This document shows, in pieces, positions 51,809 through 64,000 of a stretch of DNA of 64,000 nucleotides. Both the position numbers and the translations under genes were made by a program. Source of the stretch: Trileptium ribeirensis (Eukaryota > Nematoda > Enoplea > Enoplida > Thoracostomopsidae); contig JASANE010028269.1 of assembly GCA_030248225.1 (NCBI GenBank), positions 24,360 through 88,359 on the forward strand, in the 5' to 3' direction. Within the stretch, counting starts at the first letter, position 1; the number at the start of each line of letters is the position of its first letter. Under the pieces are notes generated by a model. That model saw only the letters and a program-made list of their open reading frames with translations, was not told the DNA's origin and did no database searches.

Positions 51809-54501
51809 AAACCCGGCCCTAGTGCACACATCTTAAGGTAAAATACACATAACATCAATTAACACAAGGACACATTGCGTTTTCGATGATTATTTATTTG
51901 TACTAGGACCAGTTCTGGCCCTAAGGGATCCCAGCTGCACCACGGTTTACTCTGTTGTGGTGCCCGGACAACCCCGGCTTCCACGACTCCCCGGTGATCT
52001 ACGCGATGACCTAAGGGAACCGCTTAGCTTAACAGGCTGCCGGCGGGTTTACCAGGGTGTTCGGCCTGGCCCTTATATTGGCCCACGTGCCTAATGGTAT
52101 GAGGTCCTCCGAGGGAGAGTCAACCCCTAAGCCTGCTCGCAGGTAATAAGGCTGACTCGCCTTTCCCTCATATTCCACTTGATCCCTAAGCGGGGTTCTC
52201 TGACCCTAGTATGACCTGAGCAAAACTCCCCATTTTGTCGTGTCCGAATGTAGAATCCTAAAGACTAGTGTGTATACAGTCACAATTTTAATAGCACCAC
52301 AGTAGGGGTGGCTCCTTACGGCATTCCTGGTTCTAATCCTAGCAGACTATACCTGTTATCTAAAAGAACACTAAGGCACTGGGGCGAGGACCCCAGTCCC
52401 TTGCGATCAAGGGTTGGACCTAAAGCTTAGTAAAAGTTCCAGTATTACTATGCGGGGTGTCCGGCTTTAATGCTCACGCGGGCGGTGTTAGGAAATAAGC
52501 TACACGACGCGATGACGGGTGATGAGGGTTGCGACAGAGGGAAGTTCTTGTCAGTTCAGGGGTGCATCGATGCTATGCGGGATGCATCGAGAAGGGGGTA
52601 GGTGTAGCATTTAAGTGAAGGGTTGCGTGGTGCTCGCGCCAGCAAAGCTAAGCCGATAAAAGGTCAACATTGGTCGCTCTCAATTCTTTACTGCACTGAC
52701 TCCATCACTGAGCTCATCACCTAATTGCCATGGGAACCCAAATTTTCTAAGGAACCTGATTCATTAACAAAGGGTTGCGAGCTGCTTCTGAAAATTACAC
52801 ACGGTTCAGCTGGTTTAATATTCGAACCAAATTTTGCATCAAACACTCCAATGAATATACATACCACCCAATTGGGGTGCACTACAAAATTATGTACAAC
52901 ACTCAGAATATATTATGATGGAAACTTCATCGGGGTACCCTGCAAGATACCCGGAGGCACATACTACATCCCCGTTTTGACTTTGATGCCCCAAAAATTT
53001 CGCTCAAGGCGAGCCTAACAGATTTTGGCATAGAAATGGAAAAAGGCTCGTTTCCTGAAAATTTCCTAGTTGTACCCTTCTGTCAAGGGACAACCGGCTG
53101 CTCATTTTACCGTAATGATTGGTCCATCGAAAAAGGTGAGCTCTGAACAAAATACTAGGACTGACGTTTCAAAATTTTGTACAATTTCGGCAGCGACTGG
53201 AGCGGCCTACAAAAGACTTGACTAATTTCAAACTCGCTCCCAGAGAGCTCCGGGAGGGGGTGGCCACCTGAATTTTCCCCGTAGTTGCACGGTTAGAAAA
53301 TACACGTTCCACCCAGGCTTATTCTAAAATTTTAGTTGCCGCCATCTCCAGTCTCTGTTGTGTTCTCTGCTCAACGAGTGACTCTCTTAAAACTTTGTCA
53401 CGTTCGGACCCGCAGTCGCCTGCATCAGAATTTAACCAGAAACAATAAGCCCACAGCGAAAGAATGAGGACTCGAAGCCGTAGCTCGGTTTTAGACAAAC
53501 GGAAGACAGATCGCGTCCCCCGAGGATGCAAGCGACTGCGTTCCCAAACTTCCTCTCCTCATCACCTCCGAATTTTGACTGAAGCTTAATTGGGAACAAT
53601 ACTTGGTTGTCTTTCCGTACGCTAAAATGTTCACATCCTGAATGGTATGCCTTTTGATTGATCCTAAGTAATGTGAAACCGCATTAAATGGGTAAAAATT
53701 TTGAATACTATTGCTCCGAACAGAAATTTGAATCACCATCGTTGATCTTGGCTTAGAAATTTTACTCTCTATCCCTTATTCCTAGAAGTTTTGATCACTC
53801 CTCGGACCTGTGAACAAAACGGCGTCCGAGGAGCGGGGAACCAGTCGAAACGCGAGCGAGACTAATTTCAAGTAATTTTAATGCATTTTGAGAATTTCGG
53901 CGGGGTCCGATCTTTACGGGCGCGCGGAGCATCCTTCCGACGCTCCAACGTCCGCAAAGAGCGGCCCTTGCGTGGTCGTGAAAATCCTAAACCCAGGGGA
54001 GGCTCCCCACCGTAGAGGTACGGCGAGAAACCACCCTAGGGAATCAAATAGGAAAAACGTAAGCGAAAGACCCTAAACAAAGAAGAAAATGCGATGGCGA
54101 CAACCGCCAAAACAACTTAAGATTTCGACTGGCTCCGATCGGGGAATCGGGCTCAGCTCTTTTATACTTTGGCTCTACCCCCCTTCCCTTTTTCCTTTTT
54201 GTCTGGTCTTCACGACACAAAACCAAAGAGCTACTGTAACTTTTGAAAATTTCCAAACTTTAAGCAAGTAGAATTTAAGCAAAACATACACAAATGGACC
54301 ACAACATAGCTGGTAAAATTTCAAACAACGCCAACTTGTATATAGAAAATTAATGACACCCAACGTGCCAATAACAACAAATTGCCTACGGCTAACAATA
54401 CGACGAATGCCCATAGCTGTGCCTGCTTGCTGTGTGTCGCCAAGGGCTAATGAATAGCAACTAAACCTCGCGCTGGTCGGCGCGAGGCTTACAGCATTAT
54501 A

Positions 54502-54568
54502 GAATATAAAAGCGCTTTAGGCGCTGTATATAGTTTAGAACTTTTGTACTTTTTCTTTTATATTTCAG
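54502..54568 (+). promoter_or_regulatory. TATA-like box, short hairpin and pyrimidine-AG site
   Basis: GAATATAAAAG is followed at once by the hairpin AGCGC-TTTAG-GCGCT, then 30 bases later by TTTTTCTTTTATATTTCAG. The spacing suggests a promoter or leader followed by a splice acceptor, but no coding exon follows that I can recognise. Confidence 0.25.
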
Positions 54569-55299
54569 GAACGGAAAGAAGCAGGCGGCCGGGGGCGGGA
54601 TCACATCCATGCCCTGGCTGGTCGCCTGCTTATGAGAGGCTTAAATTTAGTATAATCTCCCTAGGAGGCCCGTTAGAGGCCGTTTTCCCCGTACAAAATT
54701 GAAAAGTTTTGGGTCCCGACTGAATTAGGGGAATCCTGTGAAGTTCCGTTGGGGCAGGTGGCCCCGGTTTTCAGTGAAATGGTTAGTATAGGGCCCAATT
54801 AAGGTACAGAGCTCTAAAAACCGGAAAGTTTTGGTTTGGGATGTGGTGCTTTAGGGCCCGAAAGTTGGAGAGCTTAAACGCGGGATCGGGGGTCCATAAG
54901 TATCTACCGGTTGGGAGTAAGTTGACCCGAATGAGAAATTTTAAATCCTTATAGGTCCCTAATTACAATTTTATCACCCCCTTTTTGCCTAAACTTAAAA
55001 ATACTCCAAAATTTCCAGTCATAAAATACCCCTTTGTAGGATGAATTTCGCCATCTTGTCGCCTATTCCTGACGTTCCCTAATCCATGTAGTAACTATTC
55101 ATAACACCTCATGAACAATACATGTACACAAAATAACTCTTCGTTTCCCGCGTGTCAGGATAGGTCCCCCAGGTCCCAAAACATCATAAAACGCACTTTT
55201 GTCATGCGGGTATCGCACAGCACCCCGACCCATCCTGACACGTGGCAACCTACGGTACTTTATTAAACAACAAGTACATATGCATTATCGTTTATGGAT

Positions 55300-55750
55300 G
55301 CGCACCGGAACCGACCCTAGAGCACCTACTTTACAAATTCGTTAAGTCCGATTGTGATGAATCGCGAAGTCTCTCCCCCTTGTCCCCGGCCAATTCGACT
55401 ACGCATCCGTCCCACATTTCACTACGAAACAATAACATAACAATACAACAATATTTTTTCCATAATGTACAACAGTCCTGGGATCGATCGGATACCTCCG
55501 CAGTAGAATTTTGGTTCACTTTTAGGTGCGAAATCACCCCGCACACCTCGGGCTGGTGGAGCGTGACCGTACCAACACAATACAATGATAACATGAAGTT
55601 TATTTTATAACAACGAAACAATAACGCACAGGTTATAGTCTGGACCACGCTCCACCGGTATCCGATCGCCCTTTCATCCATTGAATTTTGAGGCCTTTGG
55701 GGCCTGATTTTGAATGTTTAAGATTTCACGAAAAAACTCGGGCTGTTACA
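55300..55750 (-). repeat. candidate LTR 5' portion (minus orientation)
   Basis: Reading the minus strand from 55750 gives TGTAACAGCCCGAG, a common type of Ty3/gypsy LTR start, preceded by a short purine run AAGAGA. A TTATAAAATAAA block lies about 140 bases inside. It stands 1.1 kb downstream of the last retroelement ORF. The end is not identified and the other LTR would lie outside the window. Confidence 0.28.
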
Positions 55751-56828
55751 TCTCTTAAAATTTTTTGGATTTTATAGACTCCTTACTTATGGTAGTAAGT
55801 TAAATTTGTCGAGATATGAGAAAGAAAATGAAAATTTGCGTGATTAATTCCATATGATGTACAGCCCTTGATATCAATGAAGTAAAATTGTATGAAATTT
55901 TAAAATTTAGCCTATTTGAGCTTGGAATTGTCGTAAATTTCGAAAATTTTCCAGAAATTTCCCGAAAATTTGCTAAAATTTCGCTAAAACGAGGGTAGAA
56001 GGACGATTAATTTGTTTGGTTATCACCAAAAACGAGTCCCTTCTCCCCTTATTTTCGGTAATTTTGGAAGTTTTCCCTTATGGCCTATAATATTTTTGTG
56101 AAAGTTTGTGTGATTTTGTATCTTTGAAAATTGTATTTCCAGAAAAGTACCATTTATTATTATTTATGGGGCTGAATATATGGCCCCTTGCCGCATGTAA
56201 CATAACAATATATACACAGCACAATATTATATATATATATAGGTATATTTGCAGTTTATTATACTTCTCAGCACGTACCTCCGCGTTTGGGTTTGGGTTT
56301 TAAAACAGATCCCTTGTTTAATTTTCGGGTAACTCCCAGGAAATGGTCCGGCCGCGCGGGTGCCTATTCCCAGAAGTTCCCATTTGTTAAACTTTAATAC
56401 GCCCGTTGAATGATTCGTAACCAGTTTTGCTTAATTTGCTCTAATGAAGGCAATAAATGTTATCGGACTCAGGTTGTTTTGGATTATCTCTATCACTCAA
56501 AATACTTAGTTGCCCTTTTCTTATCGTTTGCACCTGGATTATAATTTGCTCTAATTTAAGTAATAAACTTTCCTATTATTAGGTCCTTTAAAATGATTCG
56601 TTCCGTTCGTGATGCGCAGCTTGGTAACTTGTGTTTGTGCAATACCCTGTTTGCCCTGCGCGGTCCTACTGATTAATCGCCGTGCTTTATTTATGTTCGA
56701 CGCTGCTCGATATTTCTTGCCCTTCCTATTTCAGTCATCCTTAATTTTCGCCTAGGTTTGTCTAGATACTCGCACGCTTATTTCTACTTCTCTGAGGGTT
56801 CATGCGTTACGTCCCTTATTACACGCGC

Positions 56829-58164
56829 CTACCTCGTCAAACGTCCGAGTTCGGCGTCGCGCACCAGTTGGCTGACCCACTCCCGCAAATTACGCAGGCA
56901 GTACTTGGAAACCATTGGTTCCTCGAACTGCGGGCGCTCTTGCCACTCCATATGCGGCTCATCCCGTTCCCACGCGTCTGCGGCATTAAAGGCGACAGGC
57001 CAGTTCGGGAAATAGGCGTTATGGAATTCGTCGTGCTGTTGCCGATGGTTAGCGACAATCCGTTTAAACTCGACCGTCCAAGACATTGCGTCCTGGTTAG
57101 TCGCGGCCCATCGGGGTATCGGCGGTGCGACGACAATGGGTGCGCGTGTTGGTACCCGCCGCGATAGCATCCTTATATGGCGTTTGATCTTCTTGAAGGC
57201 TGCATTTGGGTTGGTCGCATGGAGCTGCTCCGGTTGCGCCTTCCGGTAAATGTATTGATAGCCTCCAAGTAAGATGACGCATTTGGTTAGTGGCGTTAAG
57301 GACAGCGCTGGCAAGTTGAATCATGCGTATTAGCGTGGTGCCAGGCCATGCGCAGACCAGCCATTTATTGTCATTGGCCATCTCCAACAACGGCAGCGGA
57401 AGCGCGTCGCCCATAATGATGACATGTGGCCAGCAAGCGTAGCCAGAAGTGAGGTATTCACGCACCTCCTCCAAAAGCCGCCCCATGACATTGTGGCAAT
57501 GCCTGGGTGGTTCGCCTTGCCGCAGTTGCTGAAGCGTGCGCCCGACACCCCAGAAGGTATCAGTAGTTACCTCCAGGAGCGGTCGAGTGCCCGTTAGGTG
57601 CAGTATCCGCGCGTAGCTAGGAAAGCCGAATTTGTGGATTAATATTGGCCGCATTATGTGCTCAAGCAGCGGTTTGAGCCGGGCGCTTGTAATGTTATCG
57701 ACCAGTTCGTCCTTGAGCGCCCGTGCTCTTGCTTTGATTTGCTGCGGCGTGCCGACCATATCCATGAGTTCTTTGGCTGCTTCCATCAGGCCAAGCACGA
57801 GCAGCACCCTTACCTGGTAGTGTTGTTCGACGGTCGGGGCCGTCGTGCCGTCATGATGGAAGGGCGTCGCTGCCTCATGCATGTTGGACAGCTCTGGCCA
57901 CTCGGTACCGTGCGACAGGAACGGGACATAGGGCTGCGTTAGGTCGACATGGTAAGTCGGGATGCTGGGCAGGCGGTATGTCGTTGCTTCGGGCGGGGCG
58001 TATGGTCCGGTTATTGATAACCGTTGGGCTGGCCCGCCTTCAGACCGTCTGGCATCGTTGTCATTGCGCCGCCTGACGCAGTTGCCCACTTGACTGTCGC
58101 TGCGTCGCCGAACGCTGCAGTCGTCCTTGTTGCTCTCACCGCGTTGCCGAACGCTGTTGTCCAT
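56829..58164 (-). pseudogene. NADAR-domain protein A of the retroelement, frameshifted
   Basis: The first frame (58164-57097) has an Arg-rich start with three (S/C)VR(Q/R)R-like repeats in residues 1-40. NADAR spans ~75-239: FHHDGTTAPTVEQHYQ, TPQQIKARAR, MRPILIHKF, TDTFWGVG and NVMGRLLEEVREYL. The second domain begins ~245 with WPHVIIMGDALPLPLLEMAN. Comparison with protein B shows the true continuation moves to a second frame (57314-56829) near 57296, giving CVILLGGYQYIY, then VVAPPIPRW and a carboxy tail ending RLTR. A TATTACAG acceptor-like site directly precedes the ATG. It is most similar to protein B in this window. Confidence 0.75.
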
Positions 58165-58398
58165 CTGTAATAATATTGCGTTTATAAATAGTTGCCCTTT
58201 TCCATATGCTAGTCAATTTTCGCCACGCATATGTGTATAATTAAGTGCGGTGGTGCACCCATTTTCCATCTCTACTATCAACTGCTTGCGTGTGTTCTAA
58301 TGTGGAATTTTCCGAGTGCCAGGGGATCGCGTTTTCTATTGCTACAGGGTGTTCGAAAGCCCCGCACTGGTTACCTGTTTTCTTTTGGCTGGAGGTAC

Positions 58399-59667
58399 CT
58401 ACGTGCAAATATGTTCCCCCTTAAGTTCTATTCTTCTTCTTCGTTGCCGGCTCTGCGTTGTTCGCCGAGGCGAAAGAGTCCCGTACAGCAAACGTAATGG
58501 CTCAAACCAATTGATTAGTTCCGCATGATATGCGGGCGCCACCACTGGCTCAGCCCAACGCTGGCAATCCTCACCCCGGTTGAACGGTCCGACCGTGTCC
58601 CAGGCTTCGGGTGCCGATAATGGTACTGACCATGGGGCCATGACGACATTTCGGAGCGCTTGATGGTCTGCGGTAAGGCGCAGTTTCCGCATGCGCAGTT
58701 CCGTCGCCCAGGCCTCGCTCGTGTAGTTGAGCGCGTTCCATTGCGGTGGCGGCGGAGCGATGTAAACGGCTGCGCTTTCCCGGAGCCGCCGCTCAAGCAC
58801 TTCCAGCTTTCGCTTGATGCGTTTGACGAACGCGCTGGGGGAAAAAACTTTTTTGGCCTGACTGCCATAGTTTGCTGTAGCCGCCGACGATGATCACGCA
58901 GTCCGTTTGCGGCGTAACGAACGCGTTGGCCCATTGGATTAGATCGGCCATCTCCATACGTGGCCAAGCGAATACCAGCCAATTATGCTGGTTGGCAGCA
59001 TTGAGCAGTGGCAACGCCTGTTCGTCACCTACGACTATGACCTGGGGCCATCGCACAAGTCCATCCTGATGATATGCCCGGATTTCCTCGAGCAGGCGAC
59101 CTGTCACGTTATGGAACGTGCGGTCACAGCAGCATTGGACGGTGCTTGTGCCAGTTCCCCAAAAGTCGTCGAACGCCGCACTAAGCAAAAGTCGGTCGCC
59201 GGTGGCTCTAGTTCTTCCGCACATTCGCTCATAGCGAACTTGGCCAGTAGAATCGGCCGCATGACGTGCGGATAGTAGGCCTGGAGCATATACCGCCTTT
59301 TAAGTGGCAGCCGACGTAGTAAGGCAATGCTGCGGAGTTGTAGCTCCATTGGGCTGATGTCCGCTTTAGCCAGTTCCTTGCCGGCGTTGTCGAATCCCAG
59401 CAGCTCCAAGATGCTGAGGTAAAAATGTTCGGACGCGCTGGATAGGCGTCGGCCGTTATGCTCGAATGTGTCGAGTGTCGTAGTTTCGTTGGCTAGCAAG
59501 GGCCGGCAGGTGCCTTTGGAGGCAAAGATCTGCACAAGCGGCCCCCGTTGAATGCGGTAGATGGACACCGTCGGGTAGGCGCCGCCGCCACAAACCATCG
59601 GAACGTGCGGCACGCCCTTTGGTATCAGTGGTCCTTGAACGTTGTTGGTGCTGTGACTTCGTCGCAT
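58399..59667 (-). pseudogene. NADAR-domain protein B of the retroelement, frameshifted
   Basis: Three overlapping frames (59667-59104, 59224-58793, 58800-58399) together parallel protein A. The first has a basic start, a beta-rich segment and the NADAR opening (SASEHFYLSILELLGF, then MRPILLAKF). The second has SAAFDDFWGTG and NVTGRLLEEIRAYHQ, the NADAR core ending, then WPQVIVVGDEQALPLLNAAN and CVIIVGGY. The third has a helix, YIAPPPPQW and a carboxy tail. Frame changes lie near 59220 and near 58835, the latter beside A6, T6 and C5 runs. NADAR enzymes cleave N-glycosidic bonds of ADP-ribose derivatives. The domain call rests on motif order, not a search. Confidence 0.72.
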
Positions 59668-59793
59668 CTATAATGTGTATACCGAGATAAGTTTTGGGTA
59701 CAAAAATAGTCTTGTTTACCTGTAAATGTATTCTTGGTCCCCTCTTCTACCCCCCTTTTTGTTGGCCCGTTGTATTTGCTTGTGTTAAGGTAC
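59668..59793 (-). other. possible intron before NADAR ORF B
   Basis: ACATTATAG directly precedes the ATG at 59667. Two donor-like sites lie upstream: CAG/GTAAAC at 59719 (52-base intron) and CAC/GTACCT at 59793 (126-base intron). The second would join the S/T/P-rich ORF to NADAR ORF B in frame at its last residues. A purine run (AAAAAGGGGGGTAGAAGAGG) also lies here on the minus strand, near 59740-59760. Confidence 0.3.
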
Positions 59794-61125
59794 GTGCGAA
59801 TACAGGCTTAGTCCACCCGTAGGTCTGGATCGGTCAGATTCTTCGTAAGGTGGTGGCCGAGGTGTTCGTTGTCGCCAAGCTGCAGGGTGTAGTTCCTGGC
59901 TAGAAGGATATCGCGGGAATGTGGTCGGTGACTGAGTCCCGCCTGGCGGGCGTTCTTCCATTAAAAGTTGTCGCGGGGTTGGCGTTGGTGCACTAGTCAT
60001 TGACGTGGTGACGCTGGTAGATTGTGCGCGTGTGGTCGAAGCTAGTCTAGTTGATGTTCCTGCAGTTTCAGTCCTAGCCATCCCTGGTTCCTGAAAAGTC
60101 ACACGTCTATGTCTGCGTAAAGCGTCTCCTATTTTTTCATCTGACGCTACGCCGTACGGCCGAAAGACCCGATCCCTGGCCTGGCGATGTGGTAAGTGTC
60201 TGGTTGGGATAGTCGCATGAGTAGTACTAAGACGTATTGTCTCAGAGGAAGTACTGCTGGTGGTGGTGGGATGTATCAGCTCAGTGATGGTTATCGCGGA
60301 TGGTCCTGGCTGGTCAGTAGTACCGAGCTGGATGGTTGAGCCTCCTCGCGCTGATACTACCTGTTTTCGTTGAGTGGGCCGTCCAACAAGTGCCTTTCCT
60401 CGTTCTTCCGGCGATGCTTGTGTGCTGGGAGCGGTGCCTAGGGTTACTGCGCGAACAATTCCTCTCCGGGGTGCCGGTGGTTCACTGCTTGATTCTGCAA
60501 GCGTGAATTCACTTAGTGAGTCGGATGTTCCTGGCTGCGTAGTAGGTGTTCTGGAGCTACTGCTGGATGTCTCTTGTCCTGCTTGACCGCGTCGTTCCGC
60601 CGAAGAGGGTTCCTGCGACGTCTGGCTGGTTAACTCGTCGTCGGCTTCAGCTGCTCTCACGTCCTCCGTGGTGCCTTCGCCAGATGTTTCTGATAGGTAG
60701 CTGGACATTGGTGACCCTGGTGGTTGAGTAAAGGCTGCCTCCCGAAAAACATATTGGTGGGGAGACCTAGGTCTGTCGGCAGCTGCTGGTGGAGCGCTGT
60801 AGGGACGTATTGCTGTATAGTCCCCTACGGTTTGCGTTGCAGTCTCCATTGGTATGCGTAGCCGTGATGCCATAATATGTTCAGCTGGTCGTGATTGAAA
60901 TAATGGATGGTCCTGAGCAGCGAGCATGATTGCGTAGCGTAAGTCCCCTGAGGTATATGGTCCAGGTACAACAATTCCTCCTGAAGTTCCGCGTGGCGTA
61001 GTAGATAGCGTGAGGTCCGCTGGGTAAAAATGTTGTCCTTCAAGTATGCCTACACCTACAGTCGGTACGCCGAATGGAACTTCCTCGCTGGTAGCCACTA
61101 TTCTTTCCATTGTGGTTACTGGCAC
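59785..61125 (-). CDS. Ser/Thr/Pro-rich ORF of the retroelement (446 residues), function unknown
   Basis: A long frame between integrase and the NADAR ORFs. It is rich in Ser, Thr, Pro and Gly, with a more ordinary first ~110 residues (ILEGQHFYPADL, GGIVVPGPYTSGDL) and low complexity after. I see no membrane segment, signal peptide, zinc knuckle or known domain, so it is not an obvious envelope gene. The listed start is GTG; the frame is open upstream to about 61190, overlapping the end of pol in the +1 frame. It may be joined to pol by a 58-base GT-AG intron (see findings). Confidence 0.55.
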   Translation of the reverse strand: MPVTTMERIVATSEEVPFGVPTVGVGILEGQHFYPADLTLSTTPRGTSGGIVVPGPYTSGDLRYAIMLAAQDHPLFQSRPAEHIMASRLRIPMETATQTVGDYTAIRPYSAPPAAADRPRSPHQYVFREAAFTQPPGSPMSSYLSETSGEGTTEDVRAAEADDELTSQTSQEPSSAERRGQAGQETSSSSSRTPTTQPGTSDSLSEFTLAESSSEPPAPRRGIVRAVTLGTAPSTQASPEERGKALVGRPTQRKQVVSARGGSTIQLGTTDQPGPSAITITELIHPTTTSSTSSETIRLSTTHATIPTRHLPHRQARDRVFRPYGVASDEKIGDALRRHRRVTFQEPGMARTETAGTSTRLASTTRAQSTSVTTSMTSAPTPTPRQLLMEERPPGGTQSPTTFPRYPSSQELHPAAWRQRTPRPPPYEESDRSRPTGGLSLYSHVP

Positions 61126-61159
61126 GGTGTGACGTCCATATTCTACCTGCGTGTCTCGG

Positions 61160-61975
61160 CTACCAGGTTCTGGTATGTATGAAAAAAACCTCTTGACTGG
61201 TTACCTGTTCCTGTGATATCGGCGGCCAAGATGGTTCTATTTCTCTGTCTGGATCAGTCAGTGGAATCCGATTCCTGACTGTCCTTGGATTCTGCGGCTC
61301 GAAGTCGTCCGTCCGATACTCAATGTGTTCCATCGCTGCTTGTTCGGCCTCAATTTCTGCATATGTCCGGCGATATAGGTTAGGATCATTGGGGTCACCC
61401 AATTCTACACTCTCGGTATCCGAACTATCACTCGCTGCTGTTCTTATAGTGCGCACTGCTACCTCATCTACAGGTTCTATTTCGGTAACGAAATCCCTAT
61501 CAGCGATAATCCGTTGGGTTGGTTCATTCAGACCCCTTTCTAATACAGAAGCGTGTACCTGACCTAGCCAGTCTCCTACGTTTGGTACTGGATCTAATGC
61601 CCTAAAACATGGCTTTGTCCTATTAATGTGTACTACATGCGCCATACCTTCTGGATTCGAATGCATTCTTACACGCATGCATGGCGGAGTGATCCTTAGT
61701 ATTTCGTATGGTCCGCACCAACGAGGCGTAAGTTTCCTAGATGTTCCTGGTGTAGTGTCGTGTCTGTAAACCCAAACTAACTCACCCGTTTGATAGCGAG
61801 GTTCGCGAGTTTGCCTATTGTACCTTAGCCGATTTACTTCCTGGGCGGCTCTCATTGATTGGTATGCGCGTTCCCTAATAGAAGCCATCCAGCGCTGCGC
61901 GTTAGCCCTGTAGGAATGAGCTCCGGTGTATCCTGTAGCTGCACTATGTCTGTCGTATTCTCCGGGGAGCCTAGG
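61160..61975 (-). pseudogene. pol: pol continuation: integrase C-terminal domain after an in-frame stop
   Basis: After the TAA at 61976-61978 the same frame stays open to 61160. It begins PRLPGEYDRH and includes RERAYQSMRAAQEVNRLRYN, the usual helix after the core, then a GPY/F-like chromatin or DNA-binding module (GELVWVYR, LTPRWCGPYEIL, HVVHINRTKP). The first ATG, at 61888, falls inside the domain, so it is the separated end of integrase rather than an independent gene. It continues with an acidic tail of ~130 residues. Confidence 0.8.
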
Positions 61976-64000
61976 TTAGAATCCATGCATGAGCAAGAAT
62001 GGTGGGTATTTTGTTGCTGTGTGTACCGAAGAGTTATAAGCCATGATGCAAAACGGCAATGACATATCCCATGAGTGGTGGTCGTTTTGTGGTACGCTTA
62101 CTCGTAGTAAATATAGTAATGTCCTATTAAATCTTTCAATTTCTCCATTTGCCTGAGGGTGGTAAGCTAAACTCATGTGTCGGAATATCTGCATTTCCTG
62201 GCATAAGTTTTCAAACATGTGTGCGGTGAAAGCACCTCCTCTGTCAGAATATAGCTCTCTGGGAGCTCCGTATTTATTAACTACCTCATATAAAAATATG
62301 TGTGCGGCAGTGTGTGCATCCTGGTGTCTTATTGCCACTGCTATTGCAAATTTTGTGAATTGATCGAGGAATGCAATAACATAGCGGTTACCCGCTTGCG
62401 ATCGAACTTGAATATCGAGTATGTCTACGAATACACGATACATTGGTTGATTTGCCAACGGAACCCTACCCAATCCGGTGGTTATCCGAAAAATTGGGCC
62501 CTTCGTGGACTGGCATAGAGTGCACCGCCTGATCCATTGCTGTGCGTGTTCTGACATACCCTTCCAGTAATAAAACTGTTTAAATTTTGCTAGTAGTCGA
62601 TCGCGGCCAGGATGTCCTCCATATAAGGTGTTATGTTCGTGTTTGAGTACCTGCTGTACTAATGTAATTGGGACGCACAACTTATAATTTATATCACCTG
62701 GCTGTAACGGATGCATGTATAATATTTTCGTATCTTGAGCTAGCTCGAAGTAATGAGCTCTCATTTCTATTCTTAGTGCGCCCAACTCGGCCTTGGACCA
62801 AATAGGACCCAGTTCTGGGTCATTTCTTTGTATGTACGGCAAGAGCCGCACTAGATTAAAATCTGAGAGATCTGAAAAGAACGGCAGGTATATGTTTTCA
62901 TGAGTGTCCTGCGCGTCCTCTATCCTAACTGTTGGTAATATTTCGGTCTCATAGTGCATCATTAATTTCATGAGCCTATCGAATTCCTGTTCTGTTGGTA
63001 GTGTGGTTGCCCTTAGTCCTACAGTTTCTGATTCAGGCCGGTGTGGCCTTTTAGATCCTCGAGCCTGAGGTCCGACTCCAGCACCCGAGGTGGTTGTAGT
63101 GTGCACTGACGTTGCTGGTGTTCCTCCTGGATCCATTCTGATTGGGATCGCGCTTAGCGTAGCTGCTTGCTGCGTTAGCGTTGCTGGGGGTACTGTAGTT
63201 ATCTGCGTGTCAGGAACTAGTTGCGATGGAATTTCCTCGGAGTTTGGCTGTCCTGGGGGAGCTATCGGGCTTCCTATTACTGCTGTTGGTGCCCCCGTTG
63301 CGAGCGGGGTCACTGTGCGTACGGGATACGGCAAGTGCGATTGGTCCCATGCGGCGCAAGTTGTTAGCGGACGAAGTCCGGTGGGTCGCCCTCGACCCAT
63401 CATTAATATTTCATATGTGTCTCCTGTTTGTTCCTCGCTGATGGATGGGTCGTATCTAGGATCCCGTGACAACGCATCGGCATTGCCATTCTCTTTACCT
63501 GGTCTGTAGAGTATTTCAAATCCTCCAAATTCAAGTAGTAACTCACTACGCCACTGGGATAAGCGTGAATTTCTAGGTGGTTTGTCAAACAGAGCCTTAA
63601 GTGGCTTATGGTCAGTTTCTACATGAAATTTGTGCCCTACTAAGTAATGCTTAAAGTGTAGCGCTGCCCATCTAATCGCGAGAGCTTCGGCTTCGATTGC
63701 GGGATACCGGCGTTGATAATCTAGCAGGGCTTTACTTGCGTACGCAATGGGTTTGAGGCCTTGTTTAGTTTTCTGCGAGAGCACTGCACCCATTGCGTAT
63801 CCTGAAGCGTCCGTCTGTAGAATAAACGGCTGTGTAAAATCAGGGTGCACTAGCACGGGTTCATCTAGGAGCGCCTGTTTTAGTTTCTTAAAAGCGTCCT
63901 CACACTTAGGAGTCCATTTAAATACTGCATCCTTGCGTTTTAGTTCGTTCAATGGTTCGCATATATCTGAATAGCTCGGTATAAATTTGTGATAGTAACC
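61976..64000 (-). CDS. pol: retroelement pol fragment: RT end, RNase H, integrase zinc finger and core
   Basis: The frame is open from the window edge to TAA at 61976. Counting from the codon at 64000, it opens with the RT connection (GYYHKFIPSYSDI). RNase H has D64 in QTDAS, E103, D130 in ETDHKPL and D175 in NADALSR. A T/P-rich linker of roughly 160 residues follows. Then comes the zinc-binding domain (H..H...C..C, HEHN to CTLC) at ~454-496, and an integrase core with D526 in FVDIL, D586 in YSDRGG and E622 in GEIER, spaced D,D35E. All catalytic residues of RNase H and integrase are present. The 5' end is outside the window. Confidence 0.93.
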   Translation of the reverse strand, partial: GYYHKFIPSYSDICEPLNELKRKDAVFKWTPKCEDAFKKLKQALLDEPVLVHPDFTQPFILQTDASGYAMGAVLSQKTKQGLKPIAYASKALLDYQRRYPAIEAEALAIRWAALHFKHYLVGHKFHVETDHKPLKALFDKPPRNSRLSQWRSELLLEFGGFEILYRPGKENGNADALSRDPRYDPSISEEQTGDTYEILMMGRGRPTGLRPLTTCAAWDQSHLPYPVRTVTPLATGAPTAVIGSPIAPPGQPNSEEIPSQLVPDTQITTVPPATLTQQAATLSAIPIRMDPGGTPATSVHTTTTSGAGVGPQARGSKRPHRPESETVGLRATTLPTEQEFDRLMKLMMHYETEILPTVRIEDAQDTHENIYLPFFSDLSDFNLVRLLPYIQRNDPELGPIWSKAELGALRIEMRAHYFELAQDTKILYMHPLQPGDINYKLCVPITLVQQVLKHEHNTLYGGHPGRDRLLAKFKQFYYWKGMSEHAQQWIRRCTLCQSTKGPIFRITTGLGRVPLANQPMYRVFVDILDIQVRSQAGNRYVIAFLDQFTKFAIAVAIRHQDAHTAAHIFLYEVVNKYGAPRELYSDRGGAFTAHMFENLCQEMQIFRHMSLAYHPQANGEIERFNRTLLYLLRVSVPQNDHHSWDMSLPFCIMAYNSSVHTATKYPPFLLMHGF

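What the first reader, a model, noticed from the sequence alone, without database searches (positions are those of the whole stretch)
56829..59667. Two NADAR-domain ORFs carried downstream of a Ty3/gypsy-type pol
Both ORFs show the NADAR block order: (T/S)xEH/QHxY, MRPIL..KF, (T/F)D(T/D)FWG(V/T)G and N(V)xGRLLEE(V/I)R. NADAR proteins are known as N-glycosidases of ADP-ribose-type substrates and, in bacteria and phages, as guanine ADP-ribosyl hydrolases that counter DarT. They lie on the same strand as pol, after integrase, where env or accessory genes sit. The inference is that this element family acquired an ADP-ribose-acting enzyme, possibly to undo host ADP-ribosylation of its nucleic acid or proteins. 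I do not know of a described retroelement with this cassette, but could not search.
Basis: partly seen in the sequence, partly recalled or inferred. Interest (0 to 1): 0.88.

Follow-up and report, generated by a model that had tools for sequence, protein, structure and literature searches.

The report
Giant retrotransposon carrying twin NADAR genes
A very large, many-copy retrotransposon in a eukaryotic genome carries two related genes of a family of enzymes that strip ADP-ribose from nucleic acids, and both genes appear to have been kept by selection, which hints that the host fights mobile DNA with ADP-ribose chemistry.

Summary
The window ends inside a Ty3/gypsy-like LTR element on the minus strand: RNase H, integrase, a Ser/Thr/Pro-rich Pol tail, two NADAR genes (A, B) and a 3' LTR ending near 51,899. 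The window's own NADAR genes are frameshifted, but both are intact in the four other copies where I read them. In 33 of 34 contigs carrying both hits (window included), the integrase C-terminus lies 2.95-3.04 kb upstream of NADAR-B, same strand; in two contigs NADAR-B lies between LTR hits 20-22 kb apart. dN/dS between the window and one copy is 0.10-0.13 for both genes. NADAR-B keeps the equivalents of catalytic Glu, Glu, Asp and Trp; NADAR-A lacks the second Glu in all four intact copies. The element is about 23 kb. A glycoprotein-like region lies upstream of Pol, and gag to the Pol tail appears to be one frame of about 4,320 codons. The same genome holds a second such retroelement with a UPF1-like helicase plus NADAR, and Polinton-like elements with NADAR. 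NADAR in retroelements is already published (Ectocarpus Gypsy, oyster Tx1), so this is a new variant. The mechanism, undoing host ADP-ribosylation, is inferred.

The parts
51899..54554 (-). 3' LTR (3' end ...CCTAGTACA at about 51,899; inner edge approximate)
   Evidence: Homology with another copy stops at 51,895; matches a 5' LTR copy, L033, up to window 54,554; same-strand LTR hits around NADAR-B in other contigs
54555..56828 (-). long 3' non-coding stretch between NADAR-B and the LTR
   Evidence: Window 54767-56828 aligns to L030 at 79% with about 15% substitutions; one 128-aa minus-strand frame without annotation lies in it
56829..58212 (-). NADAR-B gene: NADAR core plus a ~200-aa C-terminal domain; frame change near 57,290 (pieces 57097-58212 and 56829-57320)
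   Evidence: Pfam NADAR E 6.4e-13; 110 genomic places scored, the window's own included; 475-aa homologue in L030
58399..59667 (-). NADAR-A gene, paralogue of B, spread over three frames (59104-59667, 58793-59299, 58399-58893)
   Evidence: Homologous to NADAR-B; single ORF in L030, L036, L037 and L038
59785..61200 (-). Ser/Thr/Pro-rich C-terminal tail of the Pol polyprotein (out of frame with integrase here, in frame in L030)
   Evidence: 86% identical to the tail of the continuous L030 frame
61160..61975 (-). integrase C-terminal domain
   Evidence: MLVIN_C E 4.1e-7; 141 further genomic matches scored, 91-96% identical
61976..64000 (-). RNase H region, integrase zinc finger and integrase core of pol (runs off the contig end)
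   Evidence: Pfam hits; Ty3 as best PDB relative; contig ends at the window's last base

Best explanation
The window holds the 3' half of a decayed copy of a large (about 23 kb) Ty3/gypsy-like LTR retroelement with a glycoprotein-like region. The family carries, downstream of what appears to be one giant Gag-Env-like-Pol frame, a conserved module of two paralogous NADAR genes. Shown: the anatomy, the linkage, the copy number and a low dN/dS. Inferred: NADAR-B works as an N-glycosidase that removes ADP-ribose (or a related N-linked ribosyl adduct) placed by host ADP-ribosyltransferases on the element's RNA, cDNA or proteins, so protecting replication. NADAR-A, which lacks one catalytic glutamate in each intact copy read, acts as a binding or regulatory partner.
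For: Both genes intact in 4 of 4 other copies whose NADAR stretch was read, L030 and L036-L038. Integrase C-terminus 2,951-3,037 bp upstream of NADAR-B, same strand, in 33 of 34 shared contigs, window included. LTR hit 4.1-5.1 kb downstream, same strand, in 12 of 14 shared contigs, window included; LTR hits on both sides in C13118 and C19158. dN/dS 0.11 for B and 0.10-0.13 for A, against 0.04-0.05 for integrase. Catalytic positions mapped on 8bau (residues named in PMC11543638, passages): B keeps the equivalents of E43, E125, D130 and W133 in 5 of 5 copies. NADARs hydrolyse guanine-ADP-ribose in published assays (PMC11125620 and PMC11543638, passages). NADAR genes of other clades are carried by helicase-type retroelements and Polinton-like elements in the same genome.
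Against: No activity was tested. The lysine equivalent to K50, which contacts ADP-ribose, is Val in NADAR-B and Leu in the L030 NADAR-A. NADAR-A has Asn, Cys or Ser at the E125 position. Alone, NADAR-B matched YbiA in the PDB only at E 0.018 and NADAR-A matched nothing; the strong PDB matches come from a profile that also holds Polinton and helicase-type NADARs. The dN/dS rests on one pair of copies and fits any essential function, catalytic or not. The tree has no sequences from outside this genome, so independent capture is not shown.
Confidence: 0.45

Rival explanations
1. The NADAR proteins no longer act as enzymes. They bind genomic RNA or nucleoprotein and serve packaging, reverse transcription or nuclear export, as the unrelated CERV protein in the same 3' position of C. 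elegans Cer1 does.
For: The K50-equivalent lysine is not kept (B, and A of L030) and E125 is lost in A. Both carry a conserved ~200-aa C-terminal domain beyond the YbiA-like core. [quoted passage not shown]
Against: B keeps four catalytic or pocket residues in 5 of 5 copies. Other element types in the genome also carry the domain, which favours its chemistry.
Confidence: 0.27
2. NADAR-B degrades small ADP-ribose signals or damaged nucleotides rather than adducts on macromolecules, blunting an NAD-based host alarm.
For: Such a role is proposed for NADARs of DNA viruses, phages above all (PMC9503650, passages); YbiA acts on riboflavin intermediates (PMC11543638, passages).
Against: Nothing in the element speaks for a soluble substrate; characterised NADARs, including one of an oomycete, act on guanine-ADP-ribose (PMC11543638, PMC11125620, passages).
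Confidence: 0.15
3. The genes mimic or hijack a host RNA-processing factor such as the NADAR protein SNA-3 of nematode trans-splicing.
For: [quoted passage not shown]
Against: Whether the host is a nematode is unknown; the spliced-leader pattern search did not complete. No comparison with SNA-3 was made.
Confidence: 0.07
4. Chance neighbourhood: host NADAR genes or an assembly chimera beside a pol fragment.
For: The window alone shows one truncated copy at a contig end.
Against: Constant spacing in 33 of 34 shared contigs and LTR hits around NADAR-B.
Confidence: 0.01

Closest known systems
NADAR-bearing Gypsy lineage of Ectocarpus (e.g. Gypsy-12_Ec32; PMC12477816, passages seen)
   Same: Ty3/gypsy-type LTR element with a conserved NADAR domain; function unknown
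   [quoted passage not shown] Here there are two separate genes between the Pol tail and the 3' LTR, a glycoprotein-like region upstream of Pol, and a C-terminal domain after each NADAR
Tx1 LINEs of Crassostrea gigas with NADAR ORF1 (PMC12477816, passages seen)
   Same: Retroelement with a NADAR domain
   Different: Non-LTR element; NADAR in ORF1
Bdelloid rotifer LTR elements with enzymatic ORF3 (PMC5408684, passages seen)
   Same: Captured enzyme genes (GDSL esterase, DEDDy exonuclease) as ORF3 beside gag and pol
   Different: The word NADAR does not occur in that paper (0 occurrences); env-like genes there are described as ORF3, not upstream of Pol, in the passages seen
Cer1 with CERV (PMC10309623, passages seen)
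   [quoted passage not shown] no stop between gag and pol
   Different: CERV is not described as a NADAR protein; no Env-like region upstream of Pol in the passages seen
SF1 helicases in insect retrotransposons (PMC6338049, first of four parts seen)
   Same: Helicase captured by retroelements, as in the second family here
   Different: Those helicases are described as viral; the helicase here matches UPF1/IGHMBP2 best in the PDB and is followed by NADAR

Membership tests
NADAR superfamily (PF08719) | Profile match over the curated cut-off | tested here: met
   NADAR-B 49.7 bits (window) and 52.3 bits (L030) against a cut-off of 35.1. NADAR-A does not meet it and is placed only by homology to B
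NADAR superfamily (PF08719) | Residues equivalent to E43, D130 and W133 | tested here: met
   Present in B in 5 of 5 copies; Asp and Trp present in A in 4 of 4. The script's E43 pattern missed two A copies (L036, L038); the Glu is visible by eye in their sequences. Numbering: all five residues fit chain 8bau with an offset of 2, taken by me to be the structure discussed in PMC11543638
NADAR superfamily (PF08719) | ADP-ribose-contacting lysine equivalent to K50 | tested here: not met
   Val in B (window, L030, L036-L038), Leu in A of L030 (by eye); this residue is not said to define the family
YbiA subfamily | Glutamate at the E125 position | tested here: inconclusive
   Met in B (5 of 5); not met in A, which has Asn, Cys, Asn, Ser (4 of 4)
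NADAR superfamily (PF08719) | Hydrolysis of ADP-ribosyl-guanine or other N-glycosides | not testable with these tools
   Needs protein; structure prediction also did not complete, machine busy
Ty3/gypsy LTR retroelement | RNase H followed by integrase | tested here: met
   In the window, Ty3 as best PDB relative
Ty3/gypsy LTR retroelement | Protease and RT upstream of RNase H | not tested
   That stretch of the window's family was not fetched; protease-RT-RNase H-integrase is seen in the related family, L029
Ty3/gypsy LTR retroelement | Paired direct LTRs | tested here: met
   C13118: 92.65% over 2,396 bp; C12004: 96.2% in two blocks of 637 and 315 bp; C19158 by coordinates only
Ty3/gypsy LTR retroelement | Gag with zinc knuckle | tested here: met
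   L033 minus-strand ORF with CFRCGYLGHFAREC; motif recognised from memory, no Pfam search run on it
Ty3/gypsy LTR retroelement | Target-site duplication | tested here: inconclusive
   No clear duplication at C13118; the 5' edge of the C12004 copy is at the contig end
Class I viral fusion glycoprotein (Env) | Signal or anchor, furin site, fusion peptide, recognisable family | tested here: inconclusive
   RKKR followed by a hydrophobic stretch in L032 (motif recalled) and homology to the corresponding place in L029, E 7e-23; no Pfam family
[quoted passage not shown]
   NADAR genes lie downstream of the Pol tail as separate ORFs

The most novel reading that the evidence does not exclude
At least two retroelement families with glycoprotein-like regions and the Polinton-like DNA elements of one genome each kept NADAR genes because this host restricts mobile elements by ADP-ribosylating their nucleic acids. 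The window's family evolved a two-protein eraser (active B plus catalytically altered A) in a ~23 kb element whose Gag, Env-like and Pol parts are translated as one ~4,320-codon polyprotein with the Env-like part placed before Pol.
Probability: 0.3. Interest if true: 0.9.

Novelty: new variant of a known kind. Interest (0 to 1): 0.72.

Why it matters
ADP-ribosylation of nucleic acids as a weapon in conflicts with parasites is established in bacteria and phages, while the roles of eukaryotic NADARs are described as unclear (PMC11125620, passages). A many-copy element family that keeps two NADAR genes, beside other element types that also keep one, gives a concrete place to test such a conflict in a eukaryote. 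The element also shows an unusual order, with a glycoprotein-like region before Pol in what appears to be one long frame.

Tried and rejected
Degenerate SGNH (GDSL-esterase-like) C-terminal domain: suggested by the recalled pattern GD(A/E)...WPG...GG...D-x-x-H. Profile searches of the PDB with four and eight sequences found no such family (the one hit was a glycoside hydrolase at E 0.43) and Pfam found none. Not claimed.

Env taken from a known viral family: no Pfam hit. Only a motif and cross-family homology stand behind it.

Relatives outside this genome: none in the protein collection for NADAR-B or for the 13-sequence NADAR alignment, none in viral contigs for NADAR-B. One search also failed to find bacterial YbiA proteins, so that search was weak and its silence means little.

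Host identity: not solved. Rfam found nothing in the window; the spliced-leader pattern search did not complete.

Structure prediction: machine busy.

Count limits: the genome searches score only the best candidates (NADAR family 150 of 2,317; NADAR-B 110 of 2,625; LTR 40 of 2,857; integrase C-terminus 142 of 2,087; helicase 41 of 313), so copy numbers are lower bounds and the shared-contig counts rest on those subsets. They include the window's or query's own place. One contig of 34 (C12620) had its integrase hit 9.7 kb away instead of 3 kb. Two of 14 contigs (C10027, C7572) had only an upstream LTR hit. C1323 has a further LTR hit 32.6 kb downstream. 28 of the 41 scored helicase contigs have no NADAR in the capped list; whether they carry one was not tested.

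Full report
WHAT IS THERE. The window is the last 64,000 bases of an 88,359-base contig in a 687 Mb, 20,229-contig assembly. On the minus strand, from the contig end inward, lie RNase H and integrase of a Ty3/gypsy-type pol (61,976-64,000), the integrase C-terminal domain (61,160-61,975), a 471-aa Ser/Thr/Pro-rich frame (59,785-61,200), NADAR-A in three frames (58,399-59,667), NADAR-B in two frames (56,829-58,212), about 2.3 kb of non-coding DNA, and an LTR whose 3' end is near 51,899. Pfam recognises NADAR-B well above its cut-off and NADAR-A only weakly. A and B are homologous to each other.

OTHER COPIES. NADAR-B has 110 scored places in the genome, the window's own included (2,625 candidates). 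By my count of the listing, 80 of the 110 have no stop in their first matched stretch, and many open frames are 450-500 aa. The integrase C-terminus has 142 scored matches of 2,087 candidates; the 141 besides the window's own are 91-96% identical. In 33 of 34 contigs holding both, the window included, it lies 2,951-3,037 bp upstream of NADAR-B on the same strand; the exception is C12620, 9.7 kb. The window LTR has 40 scored places of 2,857 candidates. Of 14 contigs shared with NADAR-B, the window included, 12 have an LTR hit 4.1-5.1 kb downstream and 4 have one 9-18 kb upstream; C13118 and C19158 have both, and the hits are on the same strand as NADAR-B in each case. LTR identity is 92.65% over 2,396 bp in C13118 (K2P 0.054) and 96.2% in two blocks in C12004. 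No clear target-site duplication was seen.

INTACT MODULE. In the C12004 copy (L030) the stretch colinear with the window (83% over 8,105 bp) has one frame from integrase through the tail, a 410-aa NADAR-A and a 475-aa NADAR-B without stops. Three further copies were chosen because their integrase had an open frame of 4,324-4,346 aa and no NADAR-B was listed on their contig. All three (L036, L037, L038) carry both genes as single ORFs, at 48-55% (A) and 65-66% (B) identity to L030, while the Pol tail is 82-84% identical. The module is thus present in each of the five copies whose NADAR stretch I read, the window included, and the NADAR genes change faster than the Pol tail.

SELECTION. Between window and L030, dN/dS is 0.11 for both pieces of B and 0.13, 0.11 and 0.10 for the three pieces of A, against 0.04 for integrase, 0.05 for its C-terminal domain and 0.13 for the tail. 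This is one pair of copies.

CATALYTIC RESIDUES. Alone, NADAR-B matches YbiA (2b3w) only at E 0.018 and the L030 NADAR-A matches no solved structure. A profile of 13 NADAR sequences from this genome, Polinton and helicase types included, matches 8bau (4e-28) and 2b3w (2e-25). Mapping the residues named in PMC11543638 (passages) on 8bau, where all five fit with an offset of 2: NADAR-B keeps the equivalents of E43, E125, D130 and W133 in 5 of 5 copies; NADAR-A keeps Asp and Trp in 4 of 4 but has Asn, Cys, Asn and Ser in place of E125. The K50 equivalent is Val in B and Leu in the L030 A. Both genes have a ~200-aa C-terminal domain beyond the YbiA-like core, with 33 invariant columns over eight sequences and no recognised family.

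A TREE of 27 NADAR domains from this genome separates A (4 rows), B (5 rows), helicase-type (4) and Polinton-type (14). A plus B are one side of a branch with support 100/99, as is A alone (99/99); B has 85/81. One duplication before the sampled subfamilies split explains this. The program warns that long branches meet, and no sequence from outside the genome is in it.

THE WHOLE ELEMENT. In C12004 the 5' part shows a gag frame with a zinc knuckle (L033) and a 1,666-aa stretch, open at both ends, with a furin-like site and hydrophobic segment (L032), upstream of Pol. The search tool reports a 4,324-aa open frame around this copy's integrase, and 15 of 142 integrase matches have frames of 4,314-4,346 aa (my count). 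So gag, the glycoprotein-like region and Pol with its tail appear to be one reading frame; the RT stretch itself was not read. The C13118 copy spans about 22.7 kb between outer LTR limits.

OTHER NADAR CARRIERS. The best NADAR matches of the genome (150 scored of 2,317 candidates) do not include the window's own. Of the 28 places that I looked at (L001-L028, the last 20 picked by me for variety), four are of a second retroelement kind (L013, L015, L017, L020) and the other 24 look Polinton-like by eye; Pfam confirmed a packaging-ATPase match in L003 and L004, a TBP-like gene in L004 and L018, and a chromodomain integrase in L018. The name Polinton is my reading; capsid and polymerase genes were not tested. 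In the second retroelement kind, L029 shows a glycoprotein-like region, protease, RT, RNase H and integrase in one 1,438-aa frame, continued in the adjoining L017 by an integrase end, a 1,128-aa UPF1/IGHMBP2-like helicase and a NADAR gene. The glycoprotein-like regions of the two retroelement families are homologous (E 7e-23). Integrase ends also precede the helicase in L015 and L020, but none was found in L013. By my reading, all 13 contigs listed in both have NADAR 0.2-0.35 kb downstream of the helicase on the same strand; the other 28 helicase contigs are not in the capped NADAR list. LTRs of this second kind were not found in the stretches held.

HOW IT LIKELY WORKS. Shown: an LTR-flanked, many-copy family with a conserved two-gene NADAR module and a low dN/dS. 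Inferred: NADAR-B removes ADP-ribose, or a similar adduct, that the host places on the element's nucleic acids or proteins, and NADAR-A assists without full catalysis. The lost lysine and the altered A site weaken this, and an RNA-handling role like that of CERV in Cer1 is the main rival.

NOVELTY. NADAR domains in Gypsy elements of Ectocarpus (within Pol) and in oyster Tx1 LINEs are in print (PMC12477816, passages). Searches of the held library showed, in the listings and passages that I saw, no retroelement with a separate, duplicated NADAR module after Pol, none with helicase plus NADAR, and no Polinton with NADAR. The library lacks most subscription journals. I rate it a new variant of a known kind.

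Noticed in passing
L029 (G000:C14184:153000-158499) and L017 (158500-168499): Second retroelement family: glycoprotein-like region, protease, RT, RNase H and integrase in one frame, followed by a UPF1/IGHMBP2-like helicase and a NADAR gene; 41 helicase places were scored of 313 candidates, the query's own included.
   Followed up: partly
L004-L008, L010-L012, L014, L016, L018, L023, L025, L027, L028: Polinton-like elements, grouped by eye, carry a NADAR gene; a TATA-binding-protein-like gene (Pfam in L004, L018), a packaging ATPase (Pfam in L004) and a chromodomain integrase (Pfam in L018) lie beside it.
   Followed up: partly
L001-L003, L009, L019, L021, L022, L024, L026: A second Polinton-like group, by eye, has NADARs with an altered site: at the second catalytic Glu L001 and L026 have Tyr and L003 has Asn, and all three have Phe for the Trp.
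   Followed up: no
window 54767-56828 against L030:1-2042: The 3' non-coding stretch differs by about 15% while synonymous sites of the neighbouring genes differ by 29-62%, so it may be constrained, or the element may be a mosaic.
   Followed up: no
window 58793-59667 against L030: dS of the first two NADAR-A pieces (about 1.2-1.3) is more than twice that of NADAR-B (0.4-0.6) in the same pair of copies, suggesting recombination between subfamilies.
   Followed up: no
window 62674-63538: A spacer of about 290 aa with no Pfam match lies between the RNase H and integrase zinc-finger matches.
   Followed up: no
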